Shown here: positions 1,952-30,796 of the stretch, piece after piece
Position numbering within the stretch: the stretch's first letter is position 1
Layout: every line of letters begins with the position of its first letter
From: JAWLHK01 sp041690355 [NCBI: bacterium]
GTDB lineage: Bacteria > J088 > JAWLBW01
Direction of reading: 5' to 3'
Assembly (NCBI GenBank): GCA_041690355.1
Contig: JAWLHK010000002.1
Coordinates: 186,001 to 250,000 of the forward strand
Length of the DNA stretch: 64,000 nucleotides
Notes under the pieces: model-generated
What the model was told of the DNA's origin: nothing
Seen by the model: the letters and a program-made list of their open reading frames with translations, nothing else
The model's database searches: none
Program-made: the position numbers and the translations under genes

Positions 1952-3301
1952 TCAGGATTCCTTGAGGCCGAACTGCTTCAGCTTGTTGTAGGCCGAGCTT
2001 CTGGAAATGCCGAGGATCTCGGCCGTAAGCTGCACGTTCTCACCGGTGTGGCGGAAGACGGAGGTAAAGTGCTCGCGCTCGATCTCGGCGAGCGTGGCCA
2101 GGCGCGGACCTTGGTGGGGTGACGTGACGGGGGGCGTCGCCGCCGAGGGAAGAACGAGGGCCTCCACGTCGACCACCGTCCCCTGCACGCGCAGGAGAGC
2201 GCGCTCGAGAACATTGCGAAGTTCACGGATGTTGCCCGGCCAGTCGTAGCGCTTCAACTTTTCCAGGGCCGCCGACGTGAGGGTGGGGGGCGAGCGGGAG
2301 AGGCCGGGTGCGAGCGCGGCTACGATCTTTTCGGCAAGAAACGGGATGTCCTCGGCCCGCTGCCGCAGCGGCGGCAGCGCGATGGGAAAGGCGCTGATCC
2401 GATAAAACAGGTCCTGCCGGAAGGCGCCCTCCGCCGCCCGTGTCTGGAGGGGATGGTGCGTGGCAAAGATGAGCCGTACATCGGCTACCTTTTCGCGAAC
2501 CGAGCCCAGGCGGCGGAACCGGCGATCTTCGATGACCTTGAGCAGTTTGGCCTGCACGCGAAGGTCGATATCGCCGATTTCGTCGAGAAAGAGAGTGCCG
2601 TGTTGGGCGACTTCGAGCAAGCCCGGTTTCGCGGCCACCGCCCCGGTGAAGGCGCCCTTCTCATGGCCGAAGAGTTCGCTCTCGAGAAACTCGGGCGTCA
2701 GGCCGGCGCAGTTCAGATCCACAAAGGGTTCTTCGCCGCGGCTGCTCTGCTCGTGCAGCCAGCGGGCGAGCACCCCTTTGCCGCTCCCGGTCTCGCCAAG
2801 CAGCAGGATCGGCCCCTGGCCCTGAAGGGCGCTCTCGGCTTCTACACGCAGCCGCTGCGAGGCCGGGCCCGGGCCCGCGAAGGGGTCCTGTTCGGCCGCG
2901 GGGCGGCTGCGCACGGCCGCGGCCTCCTTCTGCCGGCTGCGGCGCGCACTGTGCAGGCGATCGAGAATGGTGGCCAGAGAAGGGAGATCGACCGGCTTCG
3001 TCAGAAAGTGGTCTGCGCCGGCCTGCATGGCGCGCACGGCAAGGTCGACCGTCGCATGACCGGTCAGAATGATGAAGGGGATCGCTTCTTCGAGTGCGCG
3101 CACCCGTTCGAGGAGGCGCAGTGCGTCGCCGTCGGGCAAGGAGAAGTCCGAGACGATCCAGTGCGGCGGATTCGCTTCGAGCGATCGCAGCGCCGCCTCG
3201 ATCGTATCGGCCTCCTGCACGTCGATGTTGCGCCCTGCGAGAAATCGTCTGACACCGAAACGCACGGCGGCGTCGTCTTCAACCAGCAACAGAGAATTCA
3301 T
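1952..3301 (-). CDS. NtrC-family sigma-54-dependent response regulator
   Basis: 449 residues: an N-terminal receiver (LLLVEDD; phosphoacceptor D52 in IVSDFSLPDG; Lys in LTKPVD), a central AAA+ domain with Walker A GETGSGKG, the sigma-54 contact motif GAFTGA and Walker B FLDEIG, and a C-terminal Fis-type helix-turn-helix (LTAEILGISRSSAYNKL). It should activate transcription from sigma-54 promoters when phosphorylated. ATG 3301 overlaps the 3' end of the large kinase gene by 23 nt, so that kinase is its likely partner. No convincing sigma-54 promoter (TGGCAC-N5-TTGC) was found beside the operon, so its targets may lie elsewhere. The domain set is complete and of normal length. Confidence 0.93.
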   Translation of the reverse strand: MNSLLLVEDDAAVRFGVRRFLAGRNIDVQEADTIEAALRSLEANPPHWIVSDFSLPDGDALRLLERVRALEEAIPFIILTGHATVDLAVRAMQAGADHFLTKPVDLPSLATILDRLHSARRSRQKEAAAVRSRPAAEQDPFAGPGPASQRLRVEAESALQGQGPILLLGETGSGKGVLARWLHEQSSRGEEPFVDLNCAGLTPEFLESELFGHEKGAFTGAVAAKPGLLEVAQHGTLFLDEIGDIDLRVQAKLLKVIEDRRFRRLGSVREKVADVRLIFATHHPLQTRAAEGAFRQDLFYRISAFPIALPPLRQRAEDIPFLAEKIVAALAPGLSRSPPTLTSAALEKLKRYDWPGNIRELRNVLERALLRVQGTVVDVEALVLPSAATPPVTSPHQGPRLATLAEIEREHFTSVFRHTGENVQLTAEILGISRSSAYNKLKQFGLKES

Positions 3302-8454: not shown

Positions 8455-10299
8455 TCAGAGCGGCTGAAGCTGAGCCAGAAGTGCCCGGGCAAGCGCTCCG
8501 GCATCGGGGTGGTCGGCTACCCGGGTCGTGACGACGTCGCGCTTGCGCCGGACCCACGCCTCGGCGATACGGGCGTCCTGCATTTCGCCGGGTCCCCCCG
8601 CTCCCTTTCTCGTAAGCAGCGTGGCGACGGCCTGCGTCCATTCGCCAGCTTCCGGCGAGATTGCGCGGTGCACGCGAAGGCTCTCGACCCCGTGGCCCTG
8701 CCGGATGAGAAAGAGGCGCACGAAGTCGTCTTCGGCTGCCGGCAGCACGAACACGACGTCGCCCTGGGCCGCCAGTTCCCCTTCGCGGCGGATGGTCTGG
8801 TGCACGCCGCGCAGCACCTGGTAGCGATCGCGCAGAGCCGCCGCCCGCTCGTACTGCTGCCGCTCGGCCGCCAGAATAATCTCGGCGCGCAGCTCCGTGA
8901 GCAAGCGCCGTTCGCCACCGAGAAAGGCGCGAAGCGAGGCGACCCGTTCGCCATACTCCGCCTCCGTCTCCAGAAGTGCGCAGGGGCCGCCGCAGCGGCG
9001 CATGCCGTGCTCGATGCAGGGCGAGAAGGCGGCTTGCGGCGTCAGCATCCCGCGACAGTTTCGCAGGCGGAACGTTTCGCGCAGGGCTTTCACCTCGAGG
9101 CGGCCGCCCAGGGCGAACCGGAAGGGGCCGTACGATTCCCGTTGTTCCCTGTCGCGCCCCTCTTTGCTGAAGCGCAGGCGCGGGAACGGGTCGTTCCGGT
9201 CCAGATGCAGGTATCCGTAGCGTCCCCAGGTGCGCAGCGCGTGATTGTACTCCGGCTGGCGCAGGCGGATCTCGCGCGCTTCTTCGAGCAGAGCCTCGAG
9301 TTCACTGCCGACGACGGTGTAATCGAAGTCGCGCACCTCGAGCAGCATGCGGCTCGTTTTGCCCTTCTTGGTTCCGATGAAGTAGCTGCCGAGCCGTTTG
9401 CGCAGATTCAACGCCTTGCCGACGTAGATGACCTCGCCCTTCTCATTGCGGAACCGGTAGATGCCGGGATTTTCGGGTAAGGCGCGGATGCGCTCGGGGC
9501 CCACCTTGAAGCGCAGGGCCGCACCCTGGCCCTTGGGCTTTCGATAGGCGCGCAGCCCGTCGACCGAAGAAATGCCGGCAGACTCGGCACGCCGCAGCAG
9601 CTCGACGAGGACGTCGGCCGTTACGCGGGCGTCGCCCAGGGCGCGGTGCCGATCGGAGGTGGGAATCTTCAGGCGGGCGGCCAACGCATCGAGGTTGTAG
9701 CGGGGGCCGGGGGCGAAGCTCCGCCCCAGCTTGACGGTGCACAGTTCATGACCCGCTCCCACGGGGGCCATCCCGCGCGCGCGAAAGGCGGTGTCGAGAA
9801 AGCCGAAATCGAACTTCGCGTTGTGCGCGACGCCGACGACCCCCTGGAAAAGCCGATGCAGGCGTTCGGCCACCTCGTCGAACGGGGGCGCGTCGGCAAC
9901 CATGGCGTTATCGATTCCCGTCAAACCGGTGATGAAGGGTGGTATCGTGCGGCGCGGGCGAACCAGCGTGTGCTCTTCGCCGAGCACCTTGCCGTTGCGC
10001 ACGTAGACGGCGCCGAACTCGATGATTTCGGCCGAGGCCGGATGCACGCCGGTGGTTTCGAGGTCGACGACGAGAAAGGTCGTTTCGGCGAGGGTGTCGG
10101 CGGCGGTCGTCGCCGGGCGAAGCCAGCGCACGGCGCGCCCCTCGAACTGAAGCTCGCCGGGGAGGGCGGTTTCGAGCAGTCTCCGGGCGAGATCCGGCCC
10201 CGCATCCAGGGCGAAGGCCGCCTTGCATGCCTCGACCGGATCGCATTCACCGTGCGCTTTCAGAAAGGCGCGCAACCGCTCTGCAACTGCCTGCGACAT
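8455..10299 (-). CDS. DEDDh exonuclease fused to a GIY-YIG (UvrC N-terminal-like) endonuclease
   Basis: 614 residues. A short N-terminal helical region is followed by a DnaQ-like 3'-5' exonuclease (VVDLETTG, D79/E81; HNAKFDFGFLD; HRALGDARVTADVL), then a GIY-YIG nuclease (GIYRFRN...VIYVGKALNLRKRL) and a UVR-like segment (EIILAAERQQYERAAALRD). It lacks UvrC's C-terminal RNase H and HhH domains, so it resembles the Cho-like DnaQ/UvrC fusion family found in several phyla. Likely role: DNA incision and end trimming in repair. On the minus strand, TAGCCT (10312-10307) sits 7 nt before ATG 10299 and there is no Shine-Dalgarno, so translation may be leaderless. Confidence 0.92.
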   Translation of the reverse strand: MSQAVAERLRAFLKAHGECDPVEACKAAFALDAGPDLARRLLETALPGELQFEGRAVRWLRPATTAADTLAETTFLVVDLETTGVHPASAEIIEFGAVYVRNGKVLGEEHTLVRPRRTIPPFITGLTGIDNAMVADAPPFDEVAERLHRLFQGVVGVAHNAKFDFGFLDTAFRARGMAPVGAGHELCTVKLGRSFAPGPRYNLDALAARLKIPTSDRHRALGDARVTADVLVELLRRAESAGISSVDGLRAYRKPKGQGAALRFKVGPERIRALPENPGIYRFRNEKGEVIYVGKALNLRKRLGSYFIGTKKGKTSRMLLEVRDFDYTVVGSELEALLEEAREIRLRQPEYNHALRTWGRYGYLHLDRNDPFPRLRFSKEGRDREQRESYGPFRFALGGRLEVKALRETFRLRNCRGMLTPQAAFSPCIEHGMRRCGGPCALLETEAEYGERVASLRAFLGGERRLLTELRAEIILAAERQQYERAAALRDRYQVLRGVHQTIRREGELAAQGDVVFVLPAAEDDFVRLFLIRQGHGVESLRVHRAISPEAGEWTQAVATLLTRKGAGGPGEMQDARIAEAWVRRKRDVVTTRVADHPDAGALARALLAQLQPL

Positions 10300-18794: not shown

Positions 18795-19097
18795 CCGCGC
18801 CTCGACGGCGTCCGTCGATGTGCCTCGACTGCCCGGTAGCGCTCGCACCCTGAACCTCCCGTGGTTGCTTACCACAGCTCCCATGATTATCTTTCATGGC
18901 AGGGAAGGAGAATCGCGCGGGGGTTGACAACCCCGGGATCGGGCATTACAATCTTGAAATCCTCTCGGGGGACGTGTGCCTGCACTCGGGGCTGACGTAA
19001 ACGTCTGAAAATCCACGGAGTTTTCGTGCGCTTCGGAGCGGGGCTTCGAAGTCCGAGGGACTGTATCGTCCTGAATACACAGAGCTTTTTAGAAAAC
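18795..19097 (+). other. Intergenic region between tamB and rpoD
   Basis: No gene is seen in these 303 bases. They hold a 7-bp hairpin just after tamB (18802-18818, no T-run), a short CCATGA...TCATGG inverted repeat near 18880, the rpoD promoter (18924-18952) and an untranslated leader of about 140 nt. The leader has a GACGT-AA-ACGTC repeat at 18994-19005. A GTG at 19026, preceded by GGAG, is in frame with rpoD and is a possible alternative start. Confidence 0.7.
18920..18952 (+). promoter_or_regulatory. Near-consensus sigma-70 promoter of rpoD with a symmetrical repeat over the -35 box
   Basis: TTGACA (18924-18929), a 17-nt spacer and TACAAT (18947-18952). The -35 box is embedded in GGGGTTG-A-CAACCCC (18920-18934), seven-base arms around a central A. 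A dimeric repressor binding there would block RNA polymerase. No such repressor is identified in the window. Confidence 0.88.
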
Positions 19098-21035
19098 ATG
19101 GCCAAAAAGACCACATCGAAGGGTTCGAACACCACCGGCGCCTCGAAAGGGACCAGCCGGACGAAAGCGGGATCCAAACCGACCGCCCAAGAGCTTGCCC
19201 GGGCCGAGCATAAGGCGAAGACGCCTGCCGGCACACACGAAGGCAAAGCCGGGCGCAAAACCACTCCCCGCGACACGACCACGACCAAAGCTGCGCCCAA
19301 GGCCTCGCTGGCCCGGACGGCAGCTGCCGAACAGGAACGCCCGGCCCGCCGGGGCCGCAAGGCCACTGATGCGGTTGCCGCAGAAGACGCCGCCGCCGCC
19401 CGCGGGCGCGTGACCGGCAAGATCTCGTACCGCGAGCTCAAGGAAGCCCTTCCGCCGGAGACAGAAGTCGACCTCGCAGAAGAGCCCATCGACATCCAGG
19501 AACTCTTCGTCGATTACGACTACGAGCTCATTGAGGATGAAGAGGCGGCCGAGGAGGTCGAAGAAGAAGAGGCTGCCGAAGAGAAGTCTCTTTATCCCGA
19601 AGACGAGAAGCACCTCAACTCCATCAGCCTCTACTTCAAGGAGATGGGCGAAATTCCGCTCATCTCTCAGGAAGTCGAGGTCGAGCTCTCGAAGAAGATC
19701 CGCGGCGGCGAAGACGCCATCCGCACGATTCTTTCGGAGAACGTCTATTTCATCGCCCGTTTCTGCGAAGAGCTGAGCCGGTACGACACGCTCGAGTCGA
19801 GCGTCAAGAATCTGCTTCTCGTGCGGGAAGAAGGCGACGACGACGACGAAGAGGGGGGCAGCACCTCGAGCGGCGACGAGAGCGCCATCGCTGAGATGGT
19901 CGGCAAGGCCGACAAGATTCTCAAGACGCAGGCCGAGGTCGAGCGTCTCGAGAAAAAGATGGAAAAGGCCGAGAGCGCCAAGGAAATCGAGGCGATTTCG
20001 GAGAAGCTCGAGAAGAAACGCGTCAGCATGGTGCGCCAGATCAGCGAAGTGAAGCTCTCACGGGAGTTCATGTCGAAGATCATTCAGGAGATCAAGTTCC
20101 TCGCCCAGGAAGTCGAACGGGCCGAGCGCGACATCGAGTACTTCAATCAGAAGATCGGGCTCGTGCGCGACCCCGACGAGCTCGATCTCTGGAAGCAGAA
20201 GCTCAAGAACGCCAAAATCGTCGTCAAGGAAAACCTCGACCGCGTCTCCCTGGCCAAGAAAGACTTCCGCAAGCTGCTCGAAGAGCTCGTGCAGGCCGAA
20301 GAGCAGATCAAATTCGCGCGCAATGAGCTCATGAAGGCGAACCTGCGGCTCGTCATCTCGATTGCGAAGCGCTACATCGGACGCGGGCTGCCCCTCTCGG
20401 ATCTGATTCAGGAGGGGAACCTGGGCCTGATGAAGGCGGTCGAACGCTTCGACTTCACTAAGGGGTATAAGTTTTCGACGTATGCCACCTGGTGGATCCG
20501 GCAGGCGATCACGCGCGCCATCGCCAACAAGGCGCGCACGATCCGCATTCCCGTGCACATGCTCGACATCATCAACAACCTGCTGTCGATCAGCCGTGAG
20601 CTGCACCTGAAACTCGGGCGCGAGCCGAAGGAAGAAGAAGTGGCCGAGGCCATGAAGCTTCCGGTCGAAAAGGTGAAGGAGATCAAGAAGCTCGTGCGCG
20701 AGCCGATCTCCCTCGACGAGCCGATTCACGAAGGGGACGAGAACACAATCGCCTACTTCGTGCCCGACCAGACGAGCATGAGCCCGAGCGAGGCGACGAT
20801 CAACCGTAACCTCACCGAGCAGACGCTGAAGCTTCTGAGCACGCTGAGTCCGCGCGAAGAGAAGATCATTAAGATGCGCTTCGGCCTCGGCGGCGAAACC
20901 GAGCACACGCTCGAGGAGATCGGCCGCAGCTTCAACCTGAGCCGCGAACGCATCCGTCAGATTGAAGCCGAGGCGCTGCGCAAGCTCAAGAGCCCGATTC
21001 GCTCCCGCAAGCTGCGCGAGTTTCTCGAGTTCTGA
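19098..21035 (+). CDS. rpoD: RNA polymerase primary sigma factor (sigma-70)
   Basis: 645 residues from ATG 19098 (MAKKTTSKG). An alternative GTG at 19026 with GGAG upstream would add 24 residues of unlikely composition. The N-terminal 100 residues are Lys/Ala/Thr-rich and low in complexity, followed by an acidic stretch, region 1.2 ([16 protein letters not shown]), a long acidic non-conserved insert, region 2 ([33 protein letters not shown]), region 3, and region 4 ([20 protein letters not shown]). The insert and full region 4 mark it as the housekeeping factor. It has its own promoter and terminator, so it appears monocistronic; dnaG is not adjacent. Confidence 0.97.
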
Positions 21036-21057
21036 GCTGCACCGGTTCGAATTCTTC

Positions 21058-21096
21058 AAAGGCCCATCGGAGACGATGGGCCTTTCCTTTTTTCGC
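21058..21096 (+). terminator. Rho-independent terminator of rpoD
   Basis: A 12-bp stem, AAAGGCCCATCG / CGATGGGCCTTT (21058-21069 and 21074-21085), with loop GAGA is followed by CCTTTTTT. Confidence 0.93.
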
Positions 21097-21152
21097 CTTT
21101 CCACCGGGCTCCCGCCGTCGCGCCGGGGGCCGCGCCTGTCCATCATGGACGC

Positions 21153-21425
21153 ATGGAAATACTCTGGCTACTTATCGTCGGCCTCATCGCGGGGCTCCTG
21201 GCCCGGGCCATCATGCCCGGCGACGACAGCATGGGGATTCTGCTCACCATCGTTCTCGGCATCGTCGGCGCGTTCATCGCCGGTTTTCTGGGAAGGGCGC
21301 TGGGCATTTACGAATCGACGTCGGAGGGGGGGCACATCATTGCCGCCACCATCGGCGCCATCATCCTGCTTGCCGTCGCCCGCCTGGTGAAAGGCCGCGG
21401 GCGGCATCGGCCGCATCACGCTTAG
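21153..21425 (+). CDS. GlsB/YeaQ/YmgE-family small membrane protein
   Basis: 90 residues with three hydrophobic segments (ILWLLIVGLIAGLLARAIM; LLTIVLGIVGAFIAGFLG; IIAATIGAIILLAVARL). This is the characteristic Gly-rich pattern of the transglycosylase-associated/GlsB family, including MGILLTIVLGIVGA. The C-terminus is basic and His-rich (KGRGRHRPHHA). Members are stress-related inner-membrane proteins of unclear biochemical function. It lies between the rpoD terminator and its own terminator, so it is a single-gene unit. Confidence 0.9.
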   Translation: MEILWLLIVGLIAGLLARAIMPGDDSMGILLTIVLGIVGAFIAGFLGRALGIYESTSEGGHIIAATIGAIILLAVARLVKGRGRHRPHHA

Positions 21426-21449
21426 CGTCCCTCGCGGACGACTCCACCT

Positions 21450-21492
21450 CGACAGTTCCGCCCCGCCTGGGGGCGGGACTGTCGGTTTTTCC
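21450..21492 (+). terminator. Rho-independent terminator after the GlsB-family gene
   Basis: A 15-bp stem with one G-T pair (21450-21464 with 21470-21484, CGACAGT...ACTGTCG) is followed by GTTTTT-like sequence (21486-21490). It separates this unit from the convergent terpene-synthase-like gene. Confidence 0.9.
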
Positions 21493-21518
21493 TTGCGGCC
21501 GGGCCTGCATCTGCGCGA

Positions 21519-23393
21519 TCAGGCGCGCGCCTTGCCTTCGGGGGCGCAGGCGAGAAGGGCCCAGGCGGTGGTAAGCACCGGGTGCCCCCAACAGGCCGGG
21601 AGGTAGTCCCGGTCGATGGAGACGAAAGCCGCTTCGCCGGGCCAGCTGCCATCGATCGTCTGCCGATCGAGCAGCCAGGCGGCAATCCGCTGACCGTCGA
21701 CAGGGAGCGACCAGCAGCGCGCCGCGAGGACGGCCGCTATGGTCTCGAGCACGCCGCCATAGCTGCCGTCGAGCCGTTCTTCGGCACGCAGTTCTGCTTC
21801 GAGCGTCTGGCAGACACTTTGGGCCGACGCCTCGTCGATGAATCCGTGACGCCGTGCCTGCGCGAGCACGCGATGCACGAACCAGCGCGTGAGCGGCGCG
21901 ACGTAGAAGGGGCCCTCGAATTCGCCGCGCTCGGCAACGCCGCACAGCCGTTTCCAGGCGCCGGGCGGAATGCGCTCGGCCTGGCCCTGCTCGAGCAGGC
22001 CCCAGATCGCATTGGCGGCGGTTCCGGGACAATCGTTCCCCTGCCAGACGATACCCTCGGGAGAGGGGCCCATCCAGGTGCGTACCCCCTCGTCGACAAG
22101 ATTGTCGAGCAGGAGAGCAGTGTCGGCTGCGCGGATTTCAGCCGCAAGCCGCGCCCCGAAGTAGCCGAGCACCAGTCCGGTATCGTCGGCGTCGGGAGGG
22201 ATGGTACGCTCGTGCGGGTAGTACCGCCAGCCATCGGGGTCGCGCAGGCGCTGCAGCTTCTCCCATTCGTCGTGTGCCGGGCGCCCCCACGCCTGCAATG
22301 CGGCGAGCCTGAAGATGGCCGGATACAGATCGGCGCGGACCCGCGGCTTCCCGAACAGCCCCCACCGGTGAACCTCGGCGGCCCCGGTCGCCTCCTCGAG
22401 ATACGCGAGGGCGCGCTCGACGCCATTCTCCGGGGTCAGGGCGGGAAGTGCGCGGGGACGGTCAAGCATACCGAGTGTCTCGCGTATCGTGGCCGCCGTA
22501 GCCAGAAACCAGGCGACGGCGGGTTCGAACCCCGAGGCCTCGGTAACGTCATCGATGAGCCGTGCCCAGGCCTCGCGCACGGAGAATTCTGCGTCCTGCA
22601 GGGCGATCATGGCCGATGCCGCCGCCTGAAAGCGCATCTCTGCCTGCACGTCGGGGCGCGAACGCAATCGGGAAGCGAGCAGCCTGAAGGGGCGCTTTCC
22701 GTATAGGGGAGCGAGAACGCGCGTCCACTTGCCCGCGATGAAGTCGCCCGAGCGCGGCTTCAGGTAAACGTCGAACACGTCGCTCAGGTCCTGGAGGGCG
22801 GCGCCGAAGCGCAGCCCGAATGCCTCGAACGGTCTGGTCGGACGGTCTGCCGCACGGGCGGCGACGGCGAAGAACAGCGCGAATTCGGCCCCGGCCTTGT
22901 CGAGGTGGATGGCGTCGGTGTCCGGCACCCGGGGACGATCGGTGGCGTCGAGGTCGCGGTTCTGGCCGCCGGCCATGATGAGGCCGAAGTGCAGGGCCGC
23001 CTCCAGGATCTCCGGGGTGATCGCGGCGGCTGCACGGTGGGCGAGCATGAGCAGGGCGCAAGCGTCGTTGGCGCGCGCGCCGGGCGCGTCGCCGTCGTCG
23101 ATGTCGTCGGCGACGTCGGCCGCGGCCCAGAGCAGGGTGCAGAAGATCCCGGCGGCATCGACCCGTTCCTGGGAAGCGCCCAGCGAGCGGGCCATGCGCA
23201 CCGCGAAGAGCGCGGGCGAGCCTCCGGTATGCCCGGGGGGCGTGAGAACGCGCTTTCGAAGTCGCGCGAGGAGCCCGGCCTCGACGGGGGCGCGTTGCAG
23301 ATGGGTCTCGACGGCGCTGTTCAACATGGACAGCAGCCCGGCTTCTTCGGTAAGCCAGCGTTCTTCATCATGAGCCGTCGTATGCATGTTCAT
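21519..23393 (-). CDS. Two-domain terpene-synthase-like protein: prenyl-synthase-like domain plus DxDDT/QW cyclase-like domain
   Basis: 624 residues. Residues about 55-310 look like an isoprenyl-diphosphate-synthase/class I fold: an Asp-rich motif DVADDIDDGD (93-102), then QDLSDVFDVY (201-210), where the usual QxxDDxxD has Ser204 in place of the first Asp, followed by GKWT (K222). Residues about 320-620 resemble a class II terpene cyclase/prenyltransferase alpha-barrel: WRYYPHE, then DADDTG (401-406), matching DxDDT, and a QW-like motif RQTIDGSWPGE (577-587). The inferred activity is chain elongation or ionisation plus protonation-started cyclisation; the product is unknown. It follows a hybrid kinase by 14 nt in the same operon. 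No other terpenoid gene is nearby. Alternatives: a catalytically altered or single-activity protein. Confidence 0.75.
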   Translation of the reverse strand: MNMHTTAHDEERWLTEEAGLLSMLNSAVETHLQRAPVEAGLLARLRKRVLTPPGHTGGSPALFAVRMARSLGASQERVDAAGIFCTLLWAAADVADDIDDGDAPGARANDACALLMLAHRAAAAITPEILEAALHFGLIMAGGQNRDLDATDRPRVPDTDAIHLDKAGAEFALFFAVAARAADRPTRPFEAFGLRFGAALQDLSDVFDVYLKPRSGDFIAGKWTRVLAPLYGKRPFRLLASRLRSRPDVQAEMRFQAAASAMIALQDAEFSVREAWARLIDDVTEASGFEPAVAWFLATAATIRETLGMLDRPRALPALTPENGVERALAYLEEATGAAEVHRWGLFGKPRVRADLYPAIFRLAALQAWGRPAHDEWEKLQRLRDPDGWRYYPHERTIPPDADDTGLVLGYFGARLAAEIRAADTALLLDNLVDEGVRTWMGPSPEGIVWQGNDCPGTAANAIWGLLEQGQAERIPPGAWKRLCGVAERGEFEGPFYVAPLTRWFVHRVLAQARRHGFIDEASAQSVCQTLEAELRAEERLDGSYGGVLETIAAVLAARCWSLPVDGQRIAAWLLDRQTIDGSWPGEAAFVSIDRDYLPACWGHPVLTTAWALLACAPEGKARA

Positions 23394-23407
23394 CCTGGAA
23401 GAAAAAG

Positions 23408-25477
23408 TCAGTGAAGCGAGCGACCGTGAGCATCCGACCGGGATGCCACGGCGTGCAGCTGCCGGCGCAGCTCTTCGAGCGCAATCGGCTTCTGCAGGAC
23501 ACGCACGCCGGGCGGGAGGTCGGCCAGTTCAGCCGTCCCCGGGGGGAGCGCGGTCAGAAACAGGAACCGCTCGCGCAGCGCATCCGGCGCGGCGCGTAAG
23601 AGTTCGGGGCCGGTGCCGTCACCGAGACGGATGTCGCAGAGTACGGCCGAAAACGGCTGTTTCAGATATGGGAGCGCCTCGTGAACCGAAGCGGCGGTCG
23701 TGACGGCGAAATCGCGCAGGACGTTGCGGAACAGGGTGAGGGTCCGCACCTCGTCGTCGACGATGAGAATCGGTCGCCGTTCCCGGGTTTCGATGTTCCC
23801 GGCCAGCGGCAGAGAAAGCGTGAAGGTGCTCCCCTCGTTTTCTTTCGAGTAGACCCGCAGCTGCCCGCCGTGTTCGGTGGCGATGTGGTAGCTCACGCTG
23901 AGCCCCAGGCCGGTACCGCTGCCGGGCGACTTCGTGGTGAAGAAGGGGTCGAAAATGCGCCGAAGCCGGTCGGCGGGAATTCCCGCGCCATTGTCCTCGA
24001 CCGAGAGCGTGCCGCTGATCTCGTCGGAGACCACGCGCACGATGATCCGATTCTCGTCGCGCGGACGCTCGGGAAGGGCCTGCCGCGCATTGATGAGCAG
24101 GTTGAGCAGCACCTGCACGATTTCGTCGGGTCGGCAGGAGACCATGACCGGTCGATCGGGAACTTCGACCTGCAGCTGGGTCAGGTGATGAAAATCCGCG
24201 GCGACGAGACGGTGTACGCGCTGTACGAGCTCGACGAGATCGACGGCCTCGAAAGTCCTTGACGGGGTCGGATGCGAAAGCCGCTTCAGCCCCTGGACGA
24301 TGCTGGCCACCTGGGCAAACCCGCTCTGAATGTCTTCGAGCGGCGACCGGTAGCTTTCTGGCAGGTCTTCGCGGGAAAGCAGATATTCGAGGTTGCCGGA
24401 GATGTACGTGAGCGGATTATTGATCTCGTGTGCGACCCCGGCAGACAGCGTACCCATGGCAACCATGCGATCGGCGAGCGCAAAGTGTTCCTGTAGCTCG
24501 CGGTTCTTGCGTTCGAACTCGACGCGATCCGTGGCGTCCTGGGCGAGAACGGCAAAGCGCCGCTCCTGATCGCGCAGGGGGAGCGGGACGATGCGGATGT
24601 CGAGGTATCGCTCCGACTCGGTGGCCGGCTGTCCATAAATGGAGGCGGGAACTCCGGTGGCCTCGATGCGTCGCAGCACCTCGTAAAGGTCGGCGATTTC
24701 GAGCGAGCCATCCTGGCGCCGCAGACCGGGGGCCTGCCCCGACTCCCGGTAGGTCAGGCAGAGGCCGTTGCGATCCATGACGTACAGGGCCGCCGTGGCC
24801 TGCTCGAGGGTCGACAGCCAGTCTTTTTCGACGTCGCGCAGACGCCGCTCGGCATCCAGATTCACGCGTGTAAGGTTGAGCTCGTGCTCCGACTTCATCG
24901 CGAGCTCCAGAAGTCCGATCTGCTTGACCCGTTCCGAGCCGAAGAATCCGGCCAGAACGACCGACAGCCCCGCGAGCGACCAGAGCATCGGTCGTTCACC
25001 GGCCACGGGCAGCTCGCTGTGGTATGCGAACGCGACCACGACCAGAATCGGGGCCGCGACCCCCGCCAGGACGCTCGGGTGGTTTCCCGCGCTCTGGGCC
25101 AGAAGAACGGCCATGAGGATGTAGAACGCCCCGAGATAGGTATGCCCGCCAGACGCGAGGGCAACCTCGATACACAGGCCGGCAAGGAAAATCTCGCTTT
25201 CGAGCCAGTTTGCGGCGCTGTAGGCCAGAGAGTCGAATCCATAGTGATCATATATCCATCGTGTGGTCGCCATGGCGATCGCGAAGACGCCGAACACAAA
25301 CAGGGTCGGTTCAGCGGGAAGCGGCAACCATCCGATTACCGCCAGCCCGGCCACGATGGCCAGGACGGCCACCCCCTGAAAGAAGAACGTTCGGCTTCTT
25401 CCGTGGGCGTGATAGGCCGGGTCGAGCGCCGGGGGGATGATTCTCGCGAGCTTCTTCGCAAAAGAGCCAGGATTCAT
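23408..25477 (-). CDS. Polytopic membrane hybrid histidine kinase (MASE-like N-terminus, PAS, HisKA, HATPase, receiver)
   Basis: 689 residues. About six transmembrane segments (residues 30-180) are followed by a coiled linker, a PAS domain (about 220-320), HisKA ([11 protein letters not shown], phosphoacceptor H350), HATPase ([25 protein letters not shown]) and a C-terminal receiver (LIVDDEV; D615 in [14 protein letters not shown]). The short loops between helices suggest ligand sensing inside the membrane rather than by a large periplasmic domain. It sits 14 nt upstream of the terpene-synthase-like gene, which may be its output. It is divergent from a small peptide gene and an OmpR-type regulator (25896-26615), a possible partner. 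Confidence 0.9.
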
Positions 25478-25509
25478 TGAAATTCCCGCAGGGGTGCACA
25501 GACAAGAAT

Positions 25510-25561
25510 TGTTACAGAAATCGACGAAAAGCGGGCCGAATGTTACGAACTGTAACGTAAC
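25510..25561. promoter_or_regulatory. Cluster of GTTAC/GTAAC elements between the hybrid kinase and the small peptide gene
   Basis: Four copies occur in 52 bases: GTTAC at 25511 and 25542, GTAAC at 25552 and 25557. The pair GTTAC-gaact-GTAAC (25542-25556) is a perfect inverted repeat. The region lies in the divergent promoter area of the kinase (minus) and the peptide gene (plus). The words resemble halves of the Pho box used elsewhere in the window, but the spacing (10, not 11) does not fit well. Function unknown. Confidence 0.45.
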
Positions 25562-25659
25562 GGCCAGCCGTCGTCACATTGCGGGAAGCTTTGCGGCGGG
25601 CCGACTAGCATGCGTTGGCAACCGGACATGATGTTCGGGGTTCTCTGAGGAGAGTTGCC

Positions 25660-25749
25660 ATGACGCTCAAGAAACTTGCCGCCGCCATTCTTGCCTCGAC
25701 CACCAACGCCCCCACCGCGCCGAACGATACCATCGCCTACTATCCCTGA
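25660..25749 (+). CDS. Candidate secreted 29-residue peptide
   Basis: ATG 25660 has a strong GAGGAG 7 nt upstream, and a Rho-independent terminator begins 8 nt after the stop, so the unit looks deliberately built. The product starts MTLKKLAAAILASTTNA: two Lys, a short hydrophobic core and an Ala that could be a signal-peptidase site. This leaves about 12 residues (PTAPNDTIAYYP). There is no Cys, so it is not an autoinducer of disulfide or thiolactone type. It is divergent from a polytopic membrane kinase and upstream of an OmpR regulator. Possible roles: signalling peptide, small membrane-active peptide or leader peptide. I do not recognise a family. Confidence 0.6.
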   Translation: MTLKKLAAAILASTTNAPTAPNDTIAYYP

Positions 25750-25757
25750 ACCAGACG

Positions 25758-25798
25758 GGGCCCGTCTGCCGCGACAAGGGCGACGGGCCCTGCTTTTT
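25758..25798 (+). terminator. Rho-independent terminator after the small peptide gene
   Basis: GGGCCCGTC (25758-25766) pairs with GACGGGCCC (25782-25790), followed by TGCTTTTT (T-run 25794-25798). Confidence 0.9.
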
Positions 25799-25860
25799 CG
25801 TCGGTTGACCCCGCCGGCGCAGTGCCTTTCGCGGTAATTCTCCGCCTTACCCCATTGGGC

Positions 25861-25889
25861 TTGCCAACGTTGCAACAGCTGACTATGCT
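25861..25889 (+). promoter_or_regulatory. Probable promoter of the OmpR-type regulator
   Basis: TTGCCA (25861-25866), a 17-nt spacer and TATGCT (25884-25889). The GTG start at 25896 follows six bases after the -10 box, so the transcript would start at or very near the first codon. Confidence 0.65.
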
Positions 25890-25895
25890 AATGCC

Positions 25896-26615
25896 GTGCA
25901 GCGTTTTTACCCGGCCGGGGATCTCGGGCGACTCCTTCTCGTAGAGGATGATCCGCGAATCGTGCGGATGCTCGCTCGCTACTTCGGCGAGCGGGGCGTG
26001 CAGGTGCACGCGACCGACGACCCGGTCACCGTTTGCGCCTCCATCGAGGAGGCGCGGCCCGACCTCATCCTGCTCGACTGGGTGATGCCTGAGCGCAGCG
26101 GCCTCGACGTGCTCCGCGAGATCCGCCGCCATGCCCGCTTCGTCGATATTCCCGTCATCATGCTGACGGCCCGCGCCGAAGAACTCGACCGGGTCGAGGG
26201 CCTGCTTACCGGCGCCGACGACTATGTCGTCAAACCCTTCAGCCTGGCCGAACTCGACGCGCGCATCGTCAGCGTCATGCGCCGGTATCGCCGCCGCGCT
26301 CTCCCGTACCGGGATGAGTATCTCGAAATCGATGTCGACCGCAAACGGCTCGTGTCGGGCGGGACACCGCGTACCCTGAGCGCTCAGGAGTGGGGTCTGC
26401 TCGAACTCCTCCTGCGCAGCGACGGCGTGGTTACCCGGCAGCAGATCGTCGATACGGTCTGGGGGCCGGGATTCGCCGTCACGCCGCGGGCGGTCGACGT
26501 CATGGTGGCCCGGCTGCGCCGCGCCATGGAGCCCGAGCCCGAATTCCCCCGCTATCTGCTGACCGAGCGCGGCACGGGGTACCGCTTCTGCCGCCGGCGC
26601 GATCGGCTGGACTGA
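25896..26615 (+). CDS. OmpR/PhoB-type response regulator
   Basis: 239 residues from GTG 25896. Receiver: LLLVEDD, phosphoacceptor in LILLDWVMPERSG, IMLTARAEE and Lys in YVVKPFSLAEL. The C-terminal winged helix has LSAQEWGLLELLLRSDGVVTR... and the typical VDVMVARLRRAM and RGTGYRF motifs. It is complete and of normal length. No kinase gene follows; the nearest is the divergent hybrid kinase at 23408-25477, which already carries its own receiver. There is no Shine-Dalgarno, and the promoter abuts the start codon (leaderless pattern). Targets are not known. Confidence 0.92.
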   Translation: MQRFYPAGDLGRLLLVEDDPRIVRMLARYFGERGVQVHATDDPVTVCASIEEARPDLILLDWVMPERSGLDVLREIRRHARFVDIPVIMLTARAEELDRVEGLLTGADDYVVKPFSLAELDARIVSVMRRYRRRALPYRDEYLEIDVDRKRLVSGGTPRTLSAQEWGLLELLLRSDGVVTRQQIVDTVWGPGFAVTPRAVDVMVARLRRAMEPEPEFPRYLLTERGTGYRFCRRRDRLD

Positions 26616-26642
26616 ATGCGCGCCACCCGCTAGACTCTGGGC

Positions 26643-27965
26643 ATGATGCGCCTGTCCGGATGCCTTCTGTCCGCCTGCCTCCTCCTCTCCTGCAGTTCGC
26701 CCGTTCCGCCTCCGGCAGACCGGGAGAACGACGTGAAGCCGGTTTCCGTGGCCGAACGTCTCGCGGCCCGTTACGGCATCGAACCGCTCGATTATGCCCG
26801 CGAAGAGTACTGGGGGTGCGGGATCACGCCCGGCGCAGACGCCTGCGCGCTCGACGCACAGGTGGCACGGCTCGTGACCGACGGCACGGTGCGCCTGACC
26901 GCGTTGCCGACCCTCGAGCAACCGCCGGTCGACTGTTTCTACATCTACCCCACGGTCGCGCCCGATCCGTCCGTCGACGAACACGGCGCCTTTCGCAGCG
27001 TCGAGCAGCCGCGGCTTGTCATGCAGCTGCAGGCGGCCTGGTTCGGACGCGTCTGCCGCGTGTTCGCCCCCTTTTACCGGCAGGCGACGATCGATCGCTA
27101 CCTGAAGCACGATGAGGAGTCGAAGGAGATCTTCCGCACTGCCTTTGTGGATGTGGCGGCCGCCTTCGAACACTTTCTGGCCGCGTGGAACGGGAACCGG
27201 CCGCTCGTGATCCTGGGGCACAGCCAGGGGGCGCAGATGGCCTCCTATCTGCTGCATCTCTACTTCGACGGCGCCACCACGGTCACGCGCGTCGCGGGGA
27301 GCCATACGAGCGACGCCCTGCGCCGCCGGCTTCTCGTGGCCATGCCCATCGGGTTTCACGTCTTCGTACCCGCGGGAGAACCGGTCGGCGGCTCCTTCTC
27401 GCACCTGCCGCTGTGCGAGCAGGATGCCGATCGGGGGTGCGTCATCAGCTACCGGAGCTATGCCGATGGCGAGCCCTACCATACGGCCTGGGCGACCGGA
27501 TGGATCGATGAGCAGCTGGCCGCCGAAGGGCTCCTCTACCGGACCTACGAGAAACAGTCCGATCGCCTCGCGTGCGTCAATCCTGCGCGACTCGCCCTCG
27601 ACGCTGCGAACGGGGCATTGGCGCTGGACACCGAGGGAAATGCGGCGCCCGCGGGGGCCCGTGTGCTGGATGGATCGATGATTCCCGAAGCGATGAGCAA
27701 CGTCGCCGGCCGGTTTCCCGAGGCCAAGGGGTTCTGGCTCGAGACGCCCGGCCGTTACACCGCCGCCTGCCGCGAAGACGAGAACGGAGAGCAGTATCTC
27801 GGCATCGGGTTCCACCAGCCGGCCACGACCGCCTGGCCCGGCGGAGACCTGCGGGGCGACCCGCTGGCCGCCGGGCTGCCGACCTCTGCGCTGGGTCTGC
27901 ACCTCATCGATTTCAATCACGCCCTCGGCGACCTGATCGATCACGTGCGCGTTCGGATCCCCTGA
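26643..27965 (+). CDS. DUF3089-family alpha/beta-hydrolase lipoprotein
   Basis: 440 residues. A short lipoprotein signal ends in LLLSC (lipid Cys17). The mature part has the DUF3089 pattern: VDCFYIYPTV, RVFAPFYRQAT and the nucleophile elbow ILGHSQGAQM (catalytic Ser expected in GHSQG). It is probably a membrane-anchored esterase or lipase of unknown substrate. TAGACT (26631-26636) lies six bases before ATG 26643 and no Shine-Dalgarno is present, so it may be leaderless; the second ATG at 26646 is also possible. It sits 27 nt after the OmpR regulator in the same orientation. A 7-bp GC hairpin without a T-run (27976-27999) follows the gene. Confidence 0.88.
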   Translation: MMRLSGCLLSACLLLSCSSPVPPPADRENDVKPVSVAERLAARYGIEPLDYAREEYWGCGITPGADACALDAQVARLVTDGTVRLTALPTLEQPPVDCFYIYPTVAPDPSVDEHGAFRSVEQPRLVMQLQAAWFGRVCRVFAPFYRQATIDRYLKHDEESKEIFRTAFVDVAAAFEHFLAAWNGNRPLVILGHSQGAQMASYLLHLYFDGATTVTRVAGSHTSDALRRRLLVAMPIGFHVFVPAGEPVGGSFSHLPLCEQDADRGCVISYRSYADGEPYHTAWATGWIDEQLAAEGLLYRTYEKQSDRLACVNPARLALDAANGALALDTEGNAAPAGARVLDGSMIPEAMSNVAGRFPEAKGFWLETPGRYTAACREDENGEQYLGIGFHQPATTAWPGGDLRGDPLAAGLPTSALGLHLIDFNHALGDLIDHVRVRIP

Positions 27966-28026
27966 GCCCCCGCTCCGGCGCCTCCCGCTCTCGGCGCCGC
28001 GTCTGCTCGGGTTTAGCATGGGACGC

Positions 28027-29391
28027 ATGTACTTTCGCGATCGCACGGATGCTGGAAAACAGCTGGCGGCGGCCCTTCTGCGTCTGCGTCCCGAGCGTCC
28101 GGTGGTGCTCGCGCTCCCGCGCGGCGGCGTGCCGGTCGCCTATGAGGTCGCCGCGGCGCTGGACGCTCCACTGGACGTGCTCGTCGCCCGGAAACTCGGG
28201 GCGCCCAGCCAGCCCGAGTTCGGCTTCGGCGCCATCGCCCCCGACGCACTCTATCTCGACCCGCACACGGTGCGGATGCTGCGGCTGGGCGACGCCGAGA
28301 TCGAGGAAATCGTCGGCCGTGAGAGCCGCGAGCTCGAGCGGCGCGAACGGGCCTACCGCAACGGACGCCCGCCGGCCGATGTCTCCGGCCGCACGGTCAT
28401 TCTCGTGGATGACGGACTGGCGACCGGCGTCACCATGCGCGCGGCCATACGCTCGGTCAAGGCGCGCAACCCCGGCCGCATCGTCGTGGCCGTGCCCGTG
28501 GGGGCGCCCGAAACCGTGCAGGAGATCGAGCTCGAAGTGAGCGAGATCATCTGTCTCAATCAGCCTTGGGATTTCTCGGCCGTCGGCGTCTGGTACGAAG
28601 ACTTCCGCCAGACGGAAGATCAGGAGGTCATCGAGCTGCTTGAGAAGGCGCCCCGCGGACAGCCGCAGCCGCCTGCGCAGGGGGCAGGGGGAATCGCCGG
28701 CTACGATGTAACGATACCGGCGGGCGGCCATGTCATTCTTCCGGGCAACCTGCACGTGCCGGCCGCGGCGGTCGGCGTCGTGGCCTTCGCGCACGGCAGC
28801 GGCAGCAGCCGGTTCAGCACACGCAACCGGTATGTCGCCCGCGTGCTGCAGGACGCGGGCGTCGCGACGCTGCTCTTCGACCTGCTTACCGCCGAAGAAG
28901 AAGAGGAAGATCGCTACACGGCCCACCTGCGCTTCGATATTGATTTGCTCTCCGAACGGCTCCTTGCCGCCGTGAACTGGCTCGATCAGGATGTGCGCAC
29001 GTCGGGCCTGCCCGTCGGCCTTTTCGGTGCCAGCACCGGCGGGGCGGCGGCCATCCGGGCGGCGGCCGAAGACGAGCGGGTCAAAGCCGTGGTCTCCCGC
29101 GGGGGCAGGCCTGATCTGGCGGGGAATGCGCTCGAACGCATTCTGGCGCCCACGCTGCTGCTGGTCGGCGAGAACGATCCGGTCGTCCTCGAACTGAACG
29201 AGGCGGCCTTTGCGACGATGCGCGCGCACAAGCGGCTCACGCTCATCCCGCGCGCGACCCACCTCTTTGAAGAGCCCGGAACCCTCGAGCAGGCAGCCGC
29301 CGCCGCGCGTGACTGGTTCGTGCGCCACCTCGAAGCCCCTTCGCCCGAAGTCCGTCCCGGCCGCGCGCCGGGCCGCGAAGCCCGCGAGTAG
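28027..29391 (+). CDS. Phosphoribosyltransferase fused to an alpha/beta hydrolase
   Basis: 454 residues from ATG 28027 (MYFRDRTDAGKQLA), the usual start of this family; ATG 28018 would add three residues. The N-terminal half is a type I phosphoribosyltransferase with the PRPP loop VILVDDGLATGVTM. The C-terminal half (about 220-435) is a dienelactone-hydrolase-like domain with VAFAHGSGSSR, nucleophile elbow GASTGGAA and acid/base regions VGENDPVV and ATHLFEEP. This is a known fusion, often beside erythromycin-esterase genes as here (gap 22 nt). Substrates are unknown. TAGCAT (28014-28019) lies 7 nt before the chosen start, again a leaderless layout. Confidence 0.9.
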   Translation: MYFRDRTDAGKQLAAALLRLRPERPVVLALPRGGVPVAYEVAAALDAPLDVLVARKLGAPSQPEFGFGAIAPDALYLDPHTVRMLRLGDAEIEEIVGRESRELERRERAYRNGRPPADVSGRTVILVDDGLATGVTMRAAIRSVKARNPGRIVVAVPVGAPETVQEIELEVSEIICLNQPWDFSAVGVWYEDFRQTEDQEVIELLEKAPRGQPQPPAQGAGGIAGYDVTIPAGGHVILPGNLHVPAAAVGVVAFAHGSGSSRFSTRNRYVARVLQDAGVATLLFDLLTAEEEEEDRYTAHLRFDIDLLSERLLAAVNWLDQDVRTSGLPVGLFGASTGGAAAIRAAAEDERVKAVVSRGGRPDLAGNALERILAPTLLLVGENDPVVLELNEAAFATMRAHKRLTLIPRATHLFEEPGTLEQAAAAARDWFVRHLEAPSPEVRPGRAPGREARE

Positions 29392-29413
29392 CATCCGACA
29401 CGCAGGAGACGCC

Positions 29414-30796
29414 ATGACCCGCATGAGACCTTGGGACCAGCCGCAACCGATGCCGCCGCAGCGGGATCGCAGCGGCGGAGCCTGGGGTGCGTGGATCGGA
29501 CGCCACGGCCTGCCCCTGCGCGCAGAGGACGACCTCCGTCCGCTGTTCCGCGACATAGGCTCGGCGCGCTATGTGCTCATCGGCGAGGCCTCGCACGGCA
29601 CGGCGGAATTCTACCTGTGGCGCGCGGCCATCACGGCCCGGCTCATCCGCGACTACGGGTTTTCGTTTGTCGCCGTCGAAGGAGACTGGCCCGACTGCTA
29701 CCGCATCAACCGGTACGTGCGCGGCATGGACGGCGGCGGTCACGGCGCGCGTCAGGTGCTGCACGCCTTCGAGCGCTGGCCGACGTGGATGTGGGCGAAT
29801 CGCGAGACCCTCCGGTTTCTCGACTGGCTGCGCGGGTGGAACGAGGATCGTCCCTTCGAGCAGCGGGCGGGTTTCTACGGCCTTGACGTCTACAGCCTCT
29901 GGGACTCGCTGGCCGCCGTCATGGGCTATCTGGAACGGCACGACGGCGCCGCCCTGCAGGCCGCCCGCACGGCAAGCTCGTGCTTCGAGCCGTACGGAGA
30001 ATCCATCGAGTCTTATGCCGAATCGACCGCCTTGGTTCCCGCCGGCTGCGAGCAGGAGGTCATCACCCTGCTGACCCGGATGCGCGAGGAGCGCCCGGCG
30101 CTGGCCGGCGACGACCCGGAGGCCTATTTCGATGCAGAGCAGAATGCGCTCGTGACGCGCAACGCCGAGCTCTACTACCGGGCCATGGTGCGCCGGGGGA
30201 GCAGCTCCTGGAACATCCGTGACCATCACATGGTTTCGACGCTCGAGCGCCTGATGCACCACTACGGGGATCACCATCGAAACGGGAGCGCGCCCAAGGC
30301 CGTCGTCTGGGCCCACAACACGCACGTCGGCGACGCCCGCGCGACCGACATGGCGCCAGCGGGCATGGTCAACGTCGGGCAGCTCGTGCGCGAACGGCAC
30401 CATGAAGACGGGGTCTACATCATCGGCTTCTCGAGCCATCGGGGAACGGTGGTCGCAGCCGACGAGTGGGGCGCGCCGGCCGAACGGATGCGAGTGCCGA
30501 AGGCGCGGCCGGGGAGCTTCGACGACCTGCTTCACCGGTCCTTCGGCGGTGACGGCATGCTGCTCCTGGAGGGCGCGGCCGACGACGACCTGCTTTTGCA
30601 GCCGCACGGGCACCGGGCCATCGGCGTGGTCTACCATCCGGATTTCGAAGCCTACGGCAACTATGCCGTCACCTCGCTCCCTCTCCGGTACGACGCGCTC
30701 CTGCACATCGACCACACCCACGCCCTGCGGCCCCTGCACACGACGCCGCATGACGACGTCCACGACCTGCCCGAAACCTATCCCTTCGGGCTGTGA
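29414..30796 (+). CDS. Erythromycin-esterase-family protein
   Basis: 460 residues from ATG 29414, chosen because AGGAG sits six bases upstream; the longer frame overlaps the previous gene. Family motifs: LIGEASHGTAEFYLWRAAIT (with the conserved Glu and His), FVAVEGDWPDCYRINRYVRG, VVWAHNTHVGDARATDM and GFSSHRGTV. The family includes EreA/EreB macrolide esterases, but most chromosomal members have unknown substrates and no shown resistance. The 22-nt gap to the phosphoribosyltransferase-hydrolase fusion and the frequent pairing of these families suggest a shared pathway. Do not read it as a resistance gene without a test. Confidence 0.9.
   Translation: MTRMRPWDQPQPMPPQRDRSGGAWGAWIGRHGLPLRAEDDLRPLFRDIGSARYVLIGEASHGTAEFYLWRAAITARLIRDYGFSFVAVEGDWPDCYRINRYVRGMDGGGHGARQVLHAFERWPTWMWANRETLRFLDWLRGWNEDRPFEQRAGFYGLDVYSLWDSLAAVMGYLERHDGAALQAARTASSCFEPYGESIESYAESTALVPAGCEQEVITLLTRMREERPALAGDDPEAYFDAEQNALVTRNAELYYRAMVRRGSSSWNIRDHHMVSTLERLMHHYGDHHRNGSAPKAVVWAHNTHVGDARATDMAPAGMVNVGQLVRERHHEDGVYIIGFSSHRGTVVAADEWGAPAERMRVPKARPGSFDDLLHRSFGGDGMLLLEGAADDDLLLQPHGHRAIGVVYHPDFEAYGNYAVTSLPLRYDALLHIDHTHALRPLHTTPHDDVHDLPETYPFGL

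What the first reader, a model, noticed from the sequence alone, without database searches (positions are those of the whole stretch)
21519..23393. Prenyl-synthase-like domain fused to a DxDDT/QW cyclase-like domain
One 624-residue protein carries Asp-rich motifs of an isoprenyl diphosphate synthase (DVADDIDDGD; QDLSDVFD with Ser for the first Asp; GKWT) and, in its second half, DADDTG and a QW-like RQTIDGSWPGE as in class II terpene cyclases. A protein that both builds or ionises a prenyl chain and cyclises it would be a compact terpenoid pathway. The single cyclase-like barrel (about 300 residues) is smaller than the two-barrel squalene-hopene type, and the Ser substitution may change or remove class I activity. 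I cannot tell whether this architecture has been described.
Basis: partly seen in the sequence, partly recalled or inferred. Interest (0 to 1): 0.8.

Follow-up and report, generated by a model that had tools for sequence, protein, structure and literature searches.

The report
Kinase-linked two-part terpene synthase fusion
A bacterial gene next to a sensor kinase encodes one protein that joins a prenyl-synthase-like half to a single-barrel terpene-cyclising half, a combination we saw in no other genome searched, and its first half resembles a family of kinase-paired, terpene-enzyme-like proteins in related bacteria, hinting at terpenoid signalling.

Summary
The motifs are real; the gene is on the minus strand (21519-23393, 624 aa). 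I favour class II cyclisation followed by class I-type handling of the diphosphate, as in HAD-TCbeta drimenol synthases, with a prenyl-synthase-like domain in place of HAD. No fused relative was found. The gene lies 14 bp behind a histidine kinase. Its N-half groups (long branch) with a family found in 12 of 195 genomes of one phylum (probably Myxococcota): class I-like proteins without those motifs, beside a histidine kinase in 11 of 11 readable loci (0 of 8 for ordinary prenyl synthases), with a ~100-aa protein in 11 of 11 (one weakly alike) and, in 7 of 11, a methyltransferase gene of a family closest to C6-FPP/C6-GPP methyltransferases. This suggests a terpenoid two-component signalling module. 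Activity, product and signalling are untested; no usable structure model of the C-half could be made.

The parts
21519..23393 (-). fused protein, 624 aa: prenyl-synthase-like N-domain (about residues 1-305) and class II terpene-cyclase-like C-domain (about 326-624); the boundary is my estimate
23088..23108 (-). first Asp-rich motif DDIDDGD (residues 96-102), without the RRG that follows it in canonical synthases
22770..22784 (-). second Asp-rich motif SDVFD (residues 204-208); Ser for the first Asp
22722..22733 (-). GKWT (residues 221-224), like the GKxT of canonical synthases
22182..22193 (-). class II catalytic-type motif DADD (residues 401-404), aligned with DxDD of squalene-hopene cyclases
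21642..21665 (-). QW-like motif RQTIDGSW (residues 577-584)
23408..25477 (-). hybrid histidine kinase, 689 aa: hydrophobic N-terminal segments, HisKA, HATPase_c, receiver (receiver match just under its cut-off); stop codon 14 bases before the start of the fused gene
25896..26615 (+). response regulator with a Trans_reg_C (OmpR-type) domain, divergent from the kinase; partner role inferred from position only

Best explanation
The protein is a two-domain terpene synthase. Steps 1-2 rest on sequence, 3-5 are inferred. [quoted passage not shown] (2) The N-half is an isoprenyl-synthase-type domain that keeps the first metal motif, part of the second and GKxT but lacks the canonical IPP-side motifs, so it probably does not elongate chains. 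(3) The C-domain protonates an ordinary prenyl diphosphate (FPP or GGPP) through DADD and makes a cyclic diphosphate such as a drimenyl or labdadienyl type. (4) The N-domain binds the diphosphate end with Mg2+ and ionises or removes it, possibly across a dimer, as the HAD domain does in HAD-TCbeta drimenol synthases. (5) It is co-transcribed with a hybrid histidine kinase and is kin to a kinase-linked class I-like family, so the product is likely a sensed terpenoid or its synthesis is controlled by that kinase. Rough odds: step 1 0.9; step 2 fold 0.95, no elongation 0.8; step 3 0.65; step 4 0.45; step 5 functional link to the kinase 0.6, product is the kinase's ligand 0.35.
For: N-fold: PF00348, NCBIfam and PDB best hits; 41% identity over residues 123-223 to a canonical synthase frame, E 5.5e-7; Foldseek of a low-confidence N-model: the 50 rows shown, of 570, are prenyl synthases. 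Missing IPP-side motifs: alignment and count. C-fold: SHC profile 22.8 bits vs 5.4 for the best of 200 shuffles, two collinear blocks, DADD on DxDD and QW on QW; 16-row alignment at 21-28% identity. Precedent for a beta-only class II barrel behind a diphosphate-handling N-domain: AsDMS and AstC (PMC9128629, PMC13244436; passages). Kinase link: 14-bp gap; N-domain groups with the kinase-linked family, 98/98, and again in two rebuilds; kinase beside 11 of 11 readable family loci against 0 of 8 canonical ones; methyltransferase of the C6-FPP/C6-GPP type in 7 of 11 readable loci.
Against: Pfam and NCBIfam scores of both halves are under the curated cut-offs; the C-half alone had no meaningful PDB hit and its two blocks are weak singly. 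Neither structure model is good: pLDDT 44.8 for the whole, 60.9 for the N-half with two prenyl-synthase rows in its alignment, so clefts were not tested. The N-domain is a long branch (2.51); its highest identity in the tree is to an IspA-like row (29%), and grouping it with IspA-like rows is rejected only at p 0.037. One canonical row (L074) scores as well with the family profile as the window domain, 40.3 vs 39.2 bits. No second fused protein shows that the architecture is kept. The window holds another kinase gene (3279-7244), so kinase adjacency in the window alone is weak evidence. The window lacks the small protein and methyltransferase of the related loci, and its kinase is alike only in the kinase core. 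Co-transcription is inferred from spacing.
Confidence: 0.5

Rival explanations
1. Assembly-line enzyme: the N-domain makes FPP or GGPP from IPP and an allylic diphosphate, the C-domain cyclises it (a compact bacterial counterpart of fungal PvCPS).
For: First Asp motif, GGQ, Lys166 (HLDKAG) and GKxT are kept; PvCPS shows prenyltransferase plus class II cyclase in one chain (PMC8190136, passages).
Against: GKxxR and RRG are absent and the first Asp of the second motif is Ser. That these residues bind IPP and metal is recalled knowledge, not tested here.
Confidence: 0.15
2. ComQ-like prenyltransfer: the class I domain transfers a prenyl (here cyclised) group to a peptide or other acceptor, and the kinase senses the product, as in ComQXPA.
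For: Class I-type domain without IPP motifs next to a kinase with hydrophobic N-terminal segments; in the related loci a ~100-aa protein stands just before the kinase in 11 of 11, the one in L046 only weakly alike.
Against: The small proteins share no conserved Trp or Cys and none is found near the window gene; the kinases tested match HisKA or only HATPase_c, not HisKA_3. A methyltransferase of the prenyl-diphosphate type beside the gene points to small-molecule chemistry. ComQ itself was not compared.
Confidence: 0.15
3. Regulatory pseudo-enzyme: the N-domain binds a prenyl diphosphate and controls the neighbouring kinase; the C-barrel is structural.
For: Altered second Asp motif in the family and in the window protein; constant pairing with kinases.
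Against: DADD is intact and placed as in class II cyclases; the first metal motif DDxxDG(D/E) is kept in 12 of 12 family rows and in the window protein.
Confidence: 0.15
4. The kinase neighbour is coincidence and the enzyme is an ordinary specialised-metabolism terpene synthase.
For: Another histidine kinase lies in the same 64 kb; the tree position rests on a long branch; small protein and methyltransferase are missing in the window.
Against: Kinase beside 11 of 11 readable family loci versus 0 of 8 canonical synthases; 14-bp same-strand spacing.
Confidence: 0.2

Closest known systems
HAD-TCbeta drimenol/albicanol-type synthases (AsDMS, AstC, AacA)
   Same: N-terminal domain of another fold plus C-terminal class II beta-type barrel with an Asp motif, no gamma domain; in AsDMS the N-domain motif is needed for the diphosphate step (PMC9128629, PMC13244436; passages)
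   Different: N-domain here is an isoprenyl-synthase-type domain, not HAD; DADD followed by T rather than DxDTT
Fungal chimeric PvCPS-type synthase (prenyltransferase plus class II cyclase, alpha-beta-gamma)
   Same: prenyl-synthase fold and class II cyclase in one chain (PMC8190136, passages)
   Different: here bacterial, one barrel, IPP-side motifs lost; prenyl-synthase domain N-terminal (that it is C-terminal in PvCPS is recalled)
Bacterial gamma-beta-alpha diterpene cyclases/synthases (CseDCS, ChjDCS)
   Same: class II and class I type domains fused in a bacterial protein (PMC11469919, abstract and passages)
   Different: those have gamma-beta N-terminal and alpha C-terminal; here the order is reversed and there is no gamma
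Squalene-hopene cyclase C-terminal (beta) domain
   Same: DxDD block and QW block collinear with the C-half
   Different: no second barrel; 21-28% identity to the 15 rows aligned; the stretch RWGVNYxYGT is missing
C6-FPP / C6-GPP methyltransferase terpene clusters (C6-FPP-MT with SluTC or SmoTC; BezA)
   Same: in 7 related loci the class I-like gene is followed by a methyltransferase gene; the one searched (L078) is closest to 9tb4 C6-FPP-MT (E 1.2e-54) and BezA (1.5e-49) (PMC12929941, first of four parts of the text)
   Different: paired with a kinase and a small protein; class I-like partner has IDS-like motifs; no such methyltransferase by the window gene
ComQXPA quorum sensing
   Same: class I isoprenoid enzyme encoded next to a kinase
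   Different: the census reports none outside Firmicutes (PMC4008528, passages); no small homologue near the window gene, no conserved Trp in the related small proteins, no HisKA_3 match

Membership tests
Isoprenyl diphosphate synthase (PF00348) | profile score over the curated cut-off | tested here: not met
   15.6 bits against 27
Isoprenyl diphosphate synthase (PF00348) | first Asp-rich motif DDxxD | tested here: met
   DDIDD at residue 96
Isoprenyl diphosphate synthase (PF00348) | second Asp-rich motif DDxxD | tested here: not met
   SDVFD at 204-208
Isoprenyl diphosphate synthase (PF00348) | IPP-side motifs GKxxR and RRG (role recalled) | tested here: not met
   both absent; GKxxR in 13 of 13 readable canonical rows (GGKRxR in 11), RRG in 13 of 14
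[quoted passage not shown]
   DADD aligned on DxDD
[quoted passage not shown]
   RQTIDGSW aligned with a QW block; a weaker DGSY at 542
[quoted passage not shown]
   13.9 bits against 26.1
[quoted passage not shown]
   pLDDT under 50 over most of the C-half; no second model of it
HAD-TCbeta synthases | N-terminal HAD domain | tested here: not met
   no HAD match at E up to 1; N-half is prenyl-synthase-like
HAD-TCbeta synthases | C-terminal beta-only cyclase that protonates FPP | not testable with these tools
   architecture fits; activity needs an assay
Beta-gamma or gamma-beta-alpha terpene synthases | gamma barrel | tested here: not met
   313 residues remain after the N-domain; they match the C-terminal cyclase profile, not SQHop_cyclase_N
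Kinase-linked class I-like family described here | DDxxDG(D/E) without RRG; second motif with first Asp lost; kinase gene directly upstream | tested here: met
   tree split 98/98 with long-branch warning
Kinase-linked class I-like family described here | ~100-aa protein before the kinase | tested here: not met
   none found among frames of 50+ aa in window 20001-30000
ComQXPA | ComX pre-peptide and HisKA_3 kinase (recalled) | tested here: not met
   no homologue of the small proteins near the window gene (ComX itself not searched); HisKA, no HisKA_3 match

The most novel reading that the evidence does not exclude
A terpenoid two-component signalling system: in Myxococcota-like bacteria a class I-like terpene enzyme, often with a prenyl-diphosphate C-methyltransferase, makes a small terpenoid that a neighbouring histidine kinase senses, with a ~100-aa protein as partner; in the window the enzyme has captured a class II cyclase barrel, giving a new alpha-beta order of fused terpene synthase.
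Probability: 0.3. Interest if true: 0.9.

Novelty: new variant of a known kind. Interest (0 to 1): 0.7.

Why it matters
If the enzyme works as proposed, a prenyl-synthase-type domain can play the part of the HAD domain behind a beta-only class II cyclase, which bears on how class I and class II domains came to be fused in terpene synthases. If the kinase link is functional, terpenoids would join the small molecules that bacteria sense through two-component kinases, and the related loci give a set of genes on which to test it.

Tried and rejected
Led nowhere: genome contigs and viral-contig scans with the whole protein and tblastn on plasmids (best E 5). No fused relative among 9, 199, 398, 195, 1 and 77 genomes (E limits 1, 0.01, then 0.001): every match covers part of one half, and none of 3386 frames in the 117 loci held matches both a prenyl-synthase and a cyclase profile at E 1e-3. 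L011, a hit at residues 352-404 in G005, and L015, L018 and L020 match neither profile and were dropped. Rfam and tRNA scans of the window were empty. Scans of viral contigs with A8 and A4 found no relative; A9 gave two prenyl synthases, L115 and L116. In 374 genomes of the phylum of G003 the family alignment gave one match, L117, a canonical synthase. L047-L049 were fetched and not studied.

Considered and rejected: that the frame is chance; that the C-half is some other alpha-alpha barrel without catalytic motif (DADD placed as in SHC); that the 1010-1037-aa cyclases among L102-L110 are fusions like this one: the four tested (L102, L104, L105, L110) carry an MPAB/Lcp oxygenase domain instead.

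Alignments that failed: two attempts to align the whole protein with both groups put the cyclase rows on the N-half and were not used. Rows dropped before counts: of 25 loci, I called 12 family and 8 canonical prenyl synthases by motif; 5 (L068, L069, L070, L071, L073) read as unrelated frames. L054 starts inside the gene, so its upstream side is unreadable. For the methyltransferase count L080 was dropped because its contig ends 149 bases after the gene; L044, counted as without it, has another methyltransferase-domain gene about 1.6 kb further on. Several family loci are close kin (L061 and L062, for example), so the Fisher p of 1.3e-5 overstates independence. Canonical loci were read with about 650-1350 bases on each side.

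Full report
What is there. The frame at 21519-23393 is on the minus strand and encodes 624 residues. The gene follows a 689-aa hybrid histidine kinase (23408-25477, same strand) with 14 bases between stop and start; a response regulator with an OmpR-type domain is divergent at 25896-26615. A sigma-70 factor gene (19026-21035) lies on the other strand behind it. The window's organism is not known and no genome is held for it. Era-Der gene order is shared with one of six loci looked at, from the 9-Mb genome G755; Der identity is slightly higher in two other genomes, G732 and G759 (49 and 48% against 45%), whose held phyla gave no match. That G755's phylum is Myxococcota is my inference from genome sizes up to 13.8 Mb, not a label given by a tool; the window kinase's best NCBIfam hits are Myxococcus EspC and EspA.

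The N-half. Pfam, NCBIfam and PDB agree on a prenyl synthase, each weakly. A canonical frame in G189 gives 41% identity over residues 123-223, E 5.5e-7. AlphaFold on the N-half with two prenyl-synthase rows reached pLDDT 60.9; of 570 Foldseek matches with E up to 10, the 50 listed are prenyl synthases, TM-scores about 0.4-0.6, partly by construction of the alignment. In the alignment the domain keeps DDIDDGD, GGQ, a Lys in HLDKAG and GKWT. The second motif reads SDVFD. RRG, in 13 of 14 canonical rows, and GKxxR, in 13 of 13 readable ones, are absent. From established knowledge of farnesyl diphosphate synthases (recalled), these residues hold IPP; without them chain elongation is unlikely.

The C-half. 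PF13243 E 0.029, NCBIfam squalene cyclase E 0.014. A profile of 30 cyclase frames, picked by script from the 30 loci kept, scores it 22.8 bits (E 2.8e-5 for 20000 sequences); the best of 200 shuffles scores 5.4. Two blocks are collinear: GWRYYPHERTIPPDADDTG on the DxDD block and RQTIDGSWPGE...TAWALLA on a QW block; singly they have i-E 0.36 and 0.08. With 15 cyclase fragments cut to the same span the C-half aligns at 21-28% identity. It has about the length of one barrel and no gamma barrel remains. AstC and AsDMS show that one class II beta-type barrel behind a different N-domain can be an active cyclase (passages).

How it may work. By analogy with those enzymes, DADD protonates a prenyl diphosphate and the barrel cyclises it; the metal motif of the N-domain then handles the diphosphate, perhaps in trans in a dimer. 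This is inferred.

The kinase-linked family. Searching 195 genomes of the phylum of G755 with the whole protein gave two one-half matches: L037, a cyclase, and L036, a prenyl-synthase-like gene directly behind a kinase. An alignment of the N-half with L036 led to L046, again behind a kinase, and the three-row alignment A4 gave 25 loci in 24 of 195 genomes. Twelve of them, in 12 genomes, I call one family by motif: DDxxDG(D/E), no RRG, an altered second motif; eight are canonical synthases; five are unrelated frames. A kinase lies directly upstream on the same strand in 11 of 11 readable family loci and beside 0 of 8 canonical ones (Fisher p 1.3e-5 ignoring kinship). Five of the eleven kinases were checked with Pfam: all have HATPase_c; hydrophobic N-terminal segments were computed for two of them and the window kinase. 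A protein of about 100 aa precedes the kinase in 11 of 11; ten are clearly alike, L046's only weakly (E 0.001). The family members searched have no convincing Pfam match; they share a LAGGE-like stretch and most end in TAV/TTV/ATV. A methyltransferase follows the class I gene in 7 of 11 readable loci. One of the seven was searched in the PDB: its closest relatives are C6-FPP methyltransferase 9tb4 (E 1.2e-54) and BezA (E 1.5e-49); in NCBIfam GPP 2-C-methyltransferase is the best hit of that one and the second of another, far under the cut-off. In published homoterpene pathways such methyltransferase genes accompany terpene synthase genes (PMC12929941, first of four parts; PMC12723460, passages). 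A profile of six family members has four PDB matches with E up to 10, three named as prenyl synthases and one as a rice protein Os02g0668100; best E 0.032.

Does the window protein belong there? In a 27-row tree the N-half and the family are separated from the canonical synthases with support 98/98. In two rebuilds with rows left out it again falls in a supported set of the size of the family rows plus itself (99/97, members not printed) or with L050 and L051 (95/97). Grouping it with IspA-like rows is rejected at p 0.037, with octaprenyl-type rows at p 0.005. It is a long branch and its highest pairwise identity is to an IspA-like row, so this is support, not proof. The family profile scores it 39.2 bits and the canonical profile 14.8, but canonical row L074 scores 40.3 with the family profile. 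Not shared: no small protein and no such methyltransferase by the window gene, and a kinase whose significant likeness to two of the others covers only the kinase core.

Distribution of the fusion. No second fused protein was found in 9, 199, 398, 195, 1 and 77 genomes, in the 3386 frames of the 117 loci held, or in the scans. The pattern scans need near-identical peptides and can miss distant relatives.

Literature. Full-text searches for fusions of prenyl synthases or class I domains with class II cyclases led to the fungal PvCPS type, bacterial gamma-beta-alpha enzymes and HAD-TC enzymes; the listings and passages I saw name none with this order. Searches joining terpene, methyltransferase, kinase and myxobacteria terms listed nothing that by title or abstract describes the module. 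The library holds open-licence papers only, so absence there is weak evidence.

Verdict. A real and apparently undescribed combination of known folds; the chain-building reading is unlikely; the signalling reading is attractive and untested.

Noticed in passing
L102:346-3429, L104:346-3375, L105:595-3705, L110:370-3420: Large (1010-1037 aa) squalene-hopene-cyclase-like proteins fused to an MPAB/Lcp rubber-oxygenase-type domain (PF09995) in all four tested; L102, L104 and L105 carry D(A/C)DDAG in place of DxDDTA.
   Followed up: partly
L081:10007-10306, L080:6078-6392 and nine more loci: ~100-aa protein without convincing Pfam match directly before the kinase, most ending TAV/TTV/ATV; could be a kinase partner or a peptide precursor.
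   Followed up: partly
window 8455-10299 (-): One protein with an RNase_T exonuclease domain, a GIY-YIG nuclease domain and a UvrB/C motif.
   Followed up: no
window 54976-62751 (-): 2591-aa protein with carboxypeptidase-regulatory-like and bacterial Ig-like domains.
   Followed up: no
window 28018-30796 (+): Phosphoribosyltransferase-hydrolase fusion next to an erythromycin-esterase-family gene.
   Followed up: no
window 26643-27965 (+): DUF3089 alpha/beta hydrolase gene directly behind the response regulator.
   Followed up: no
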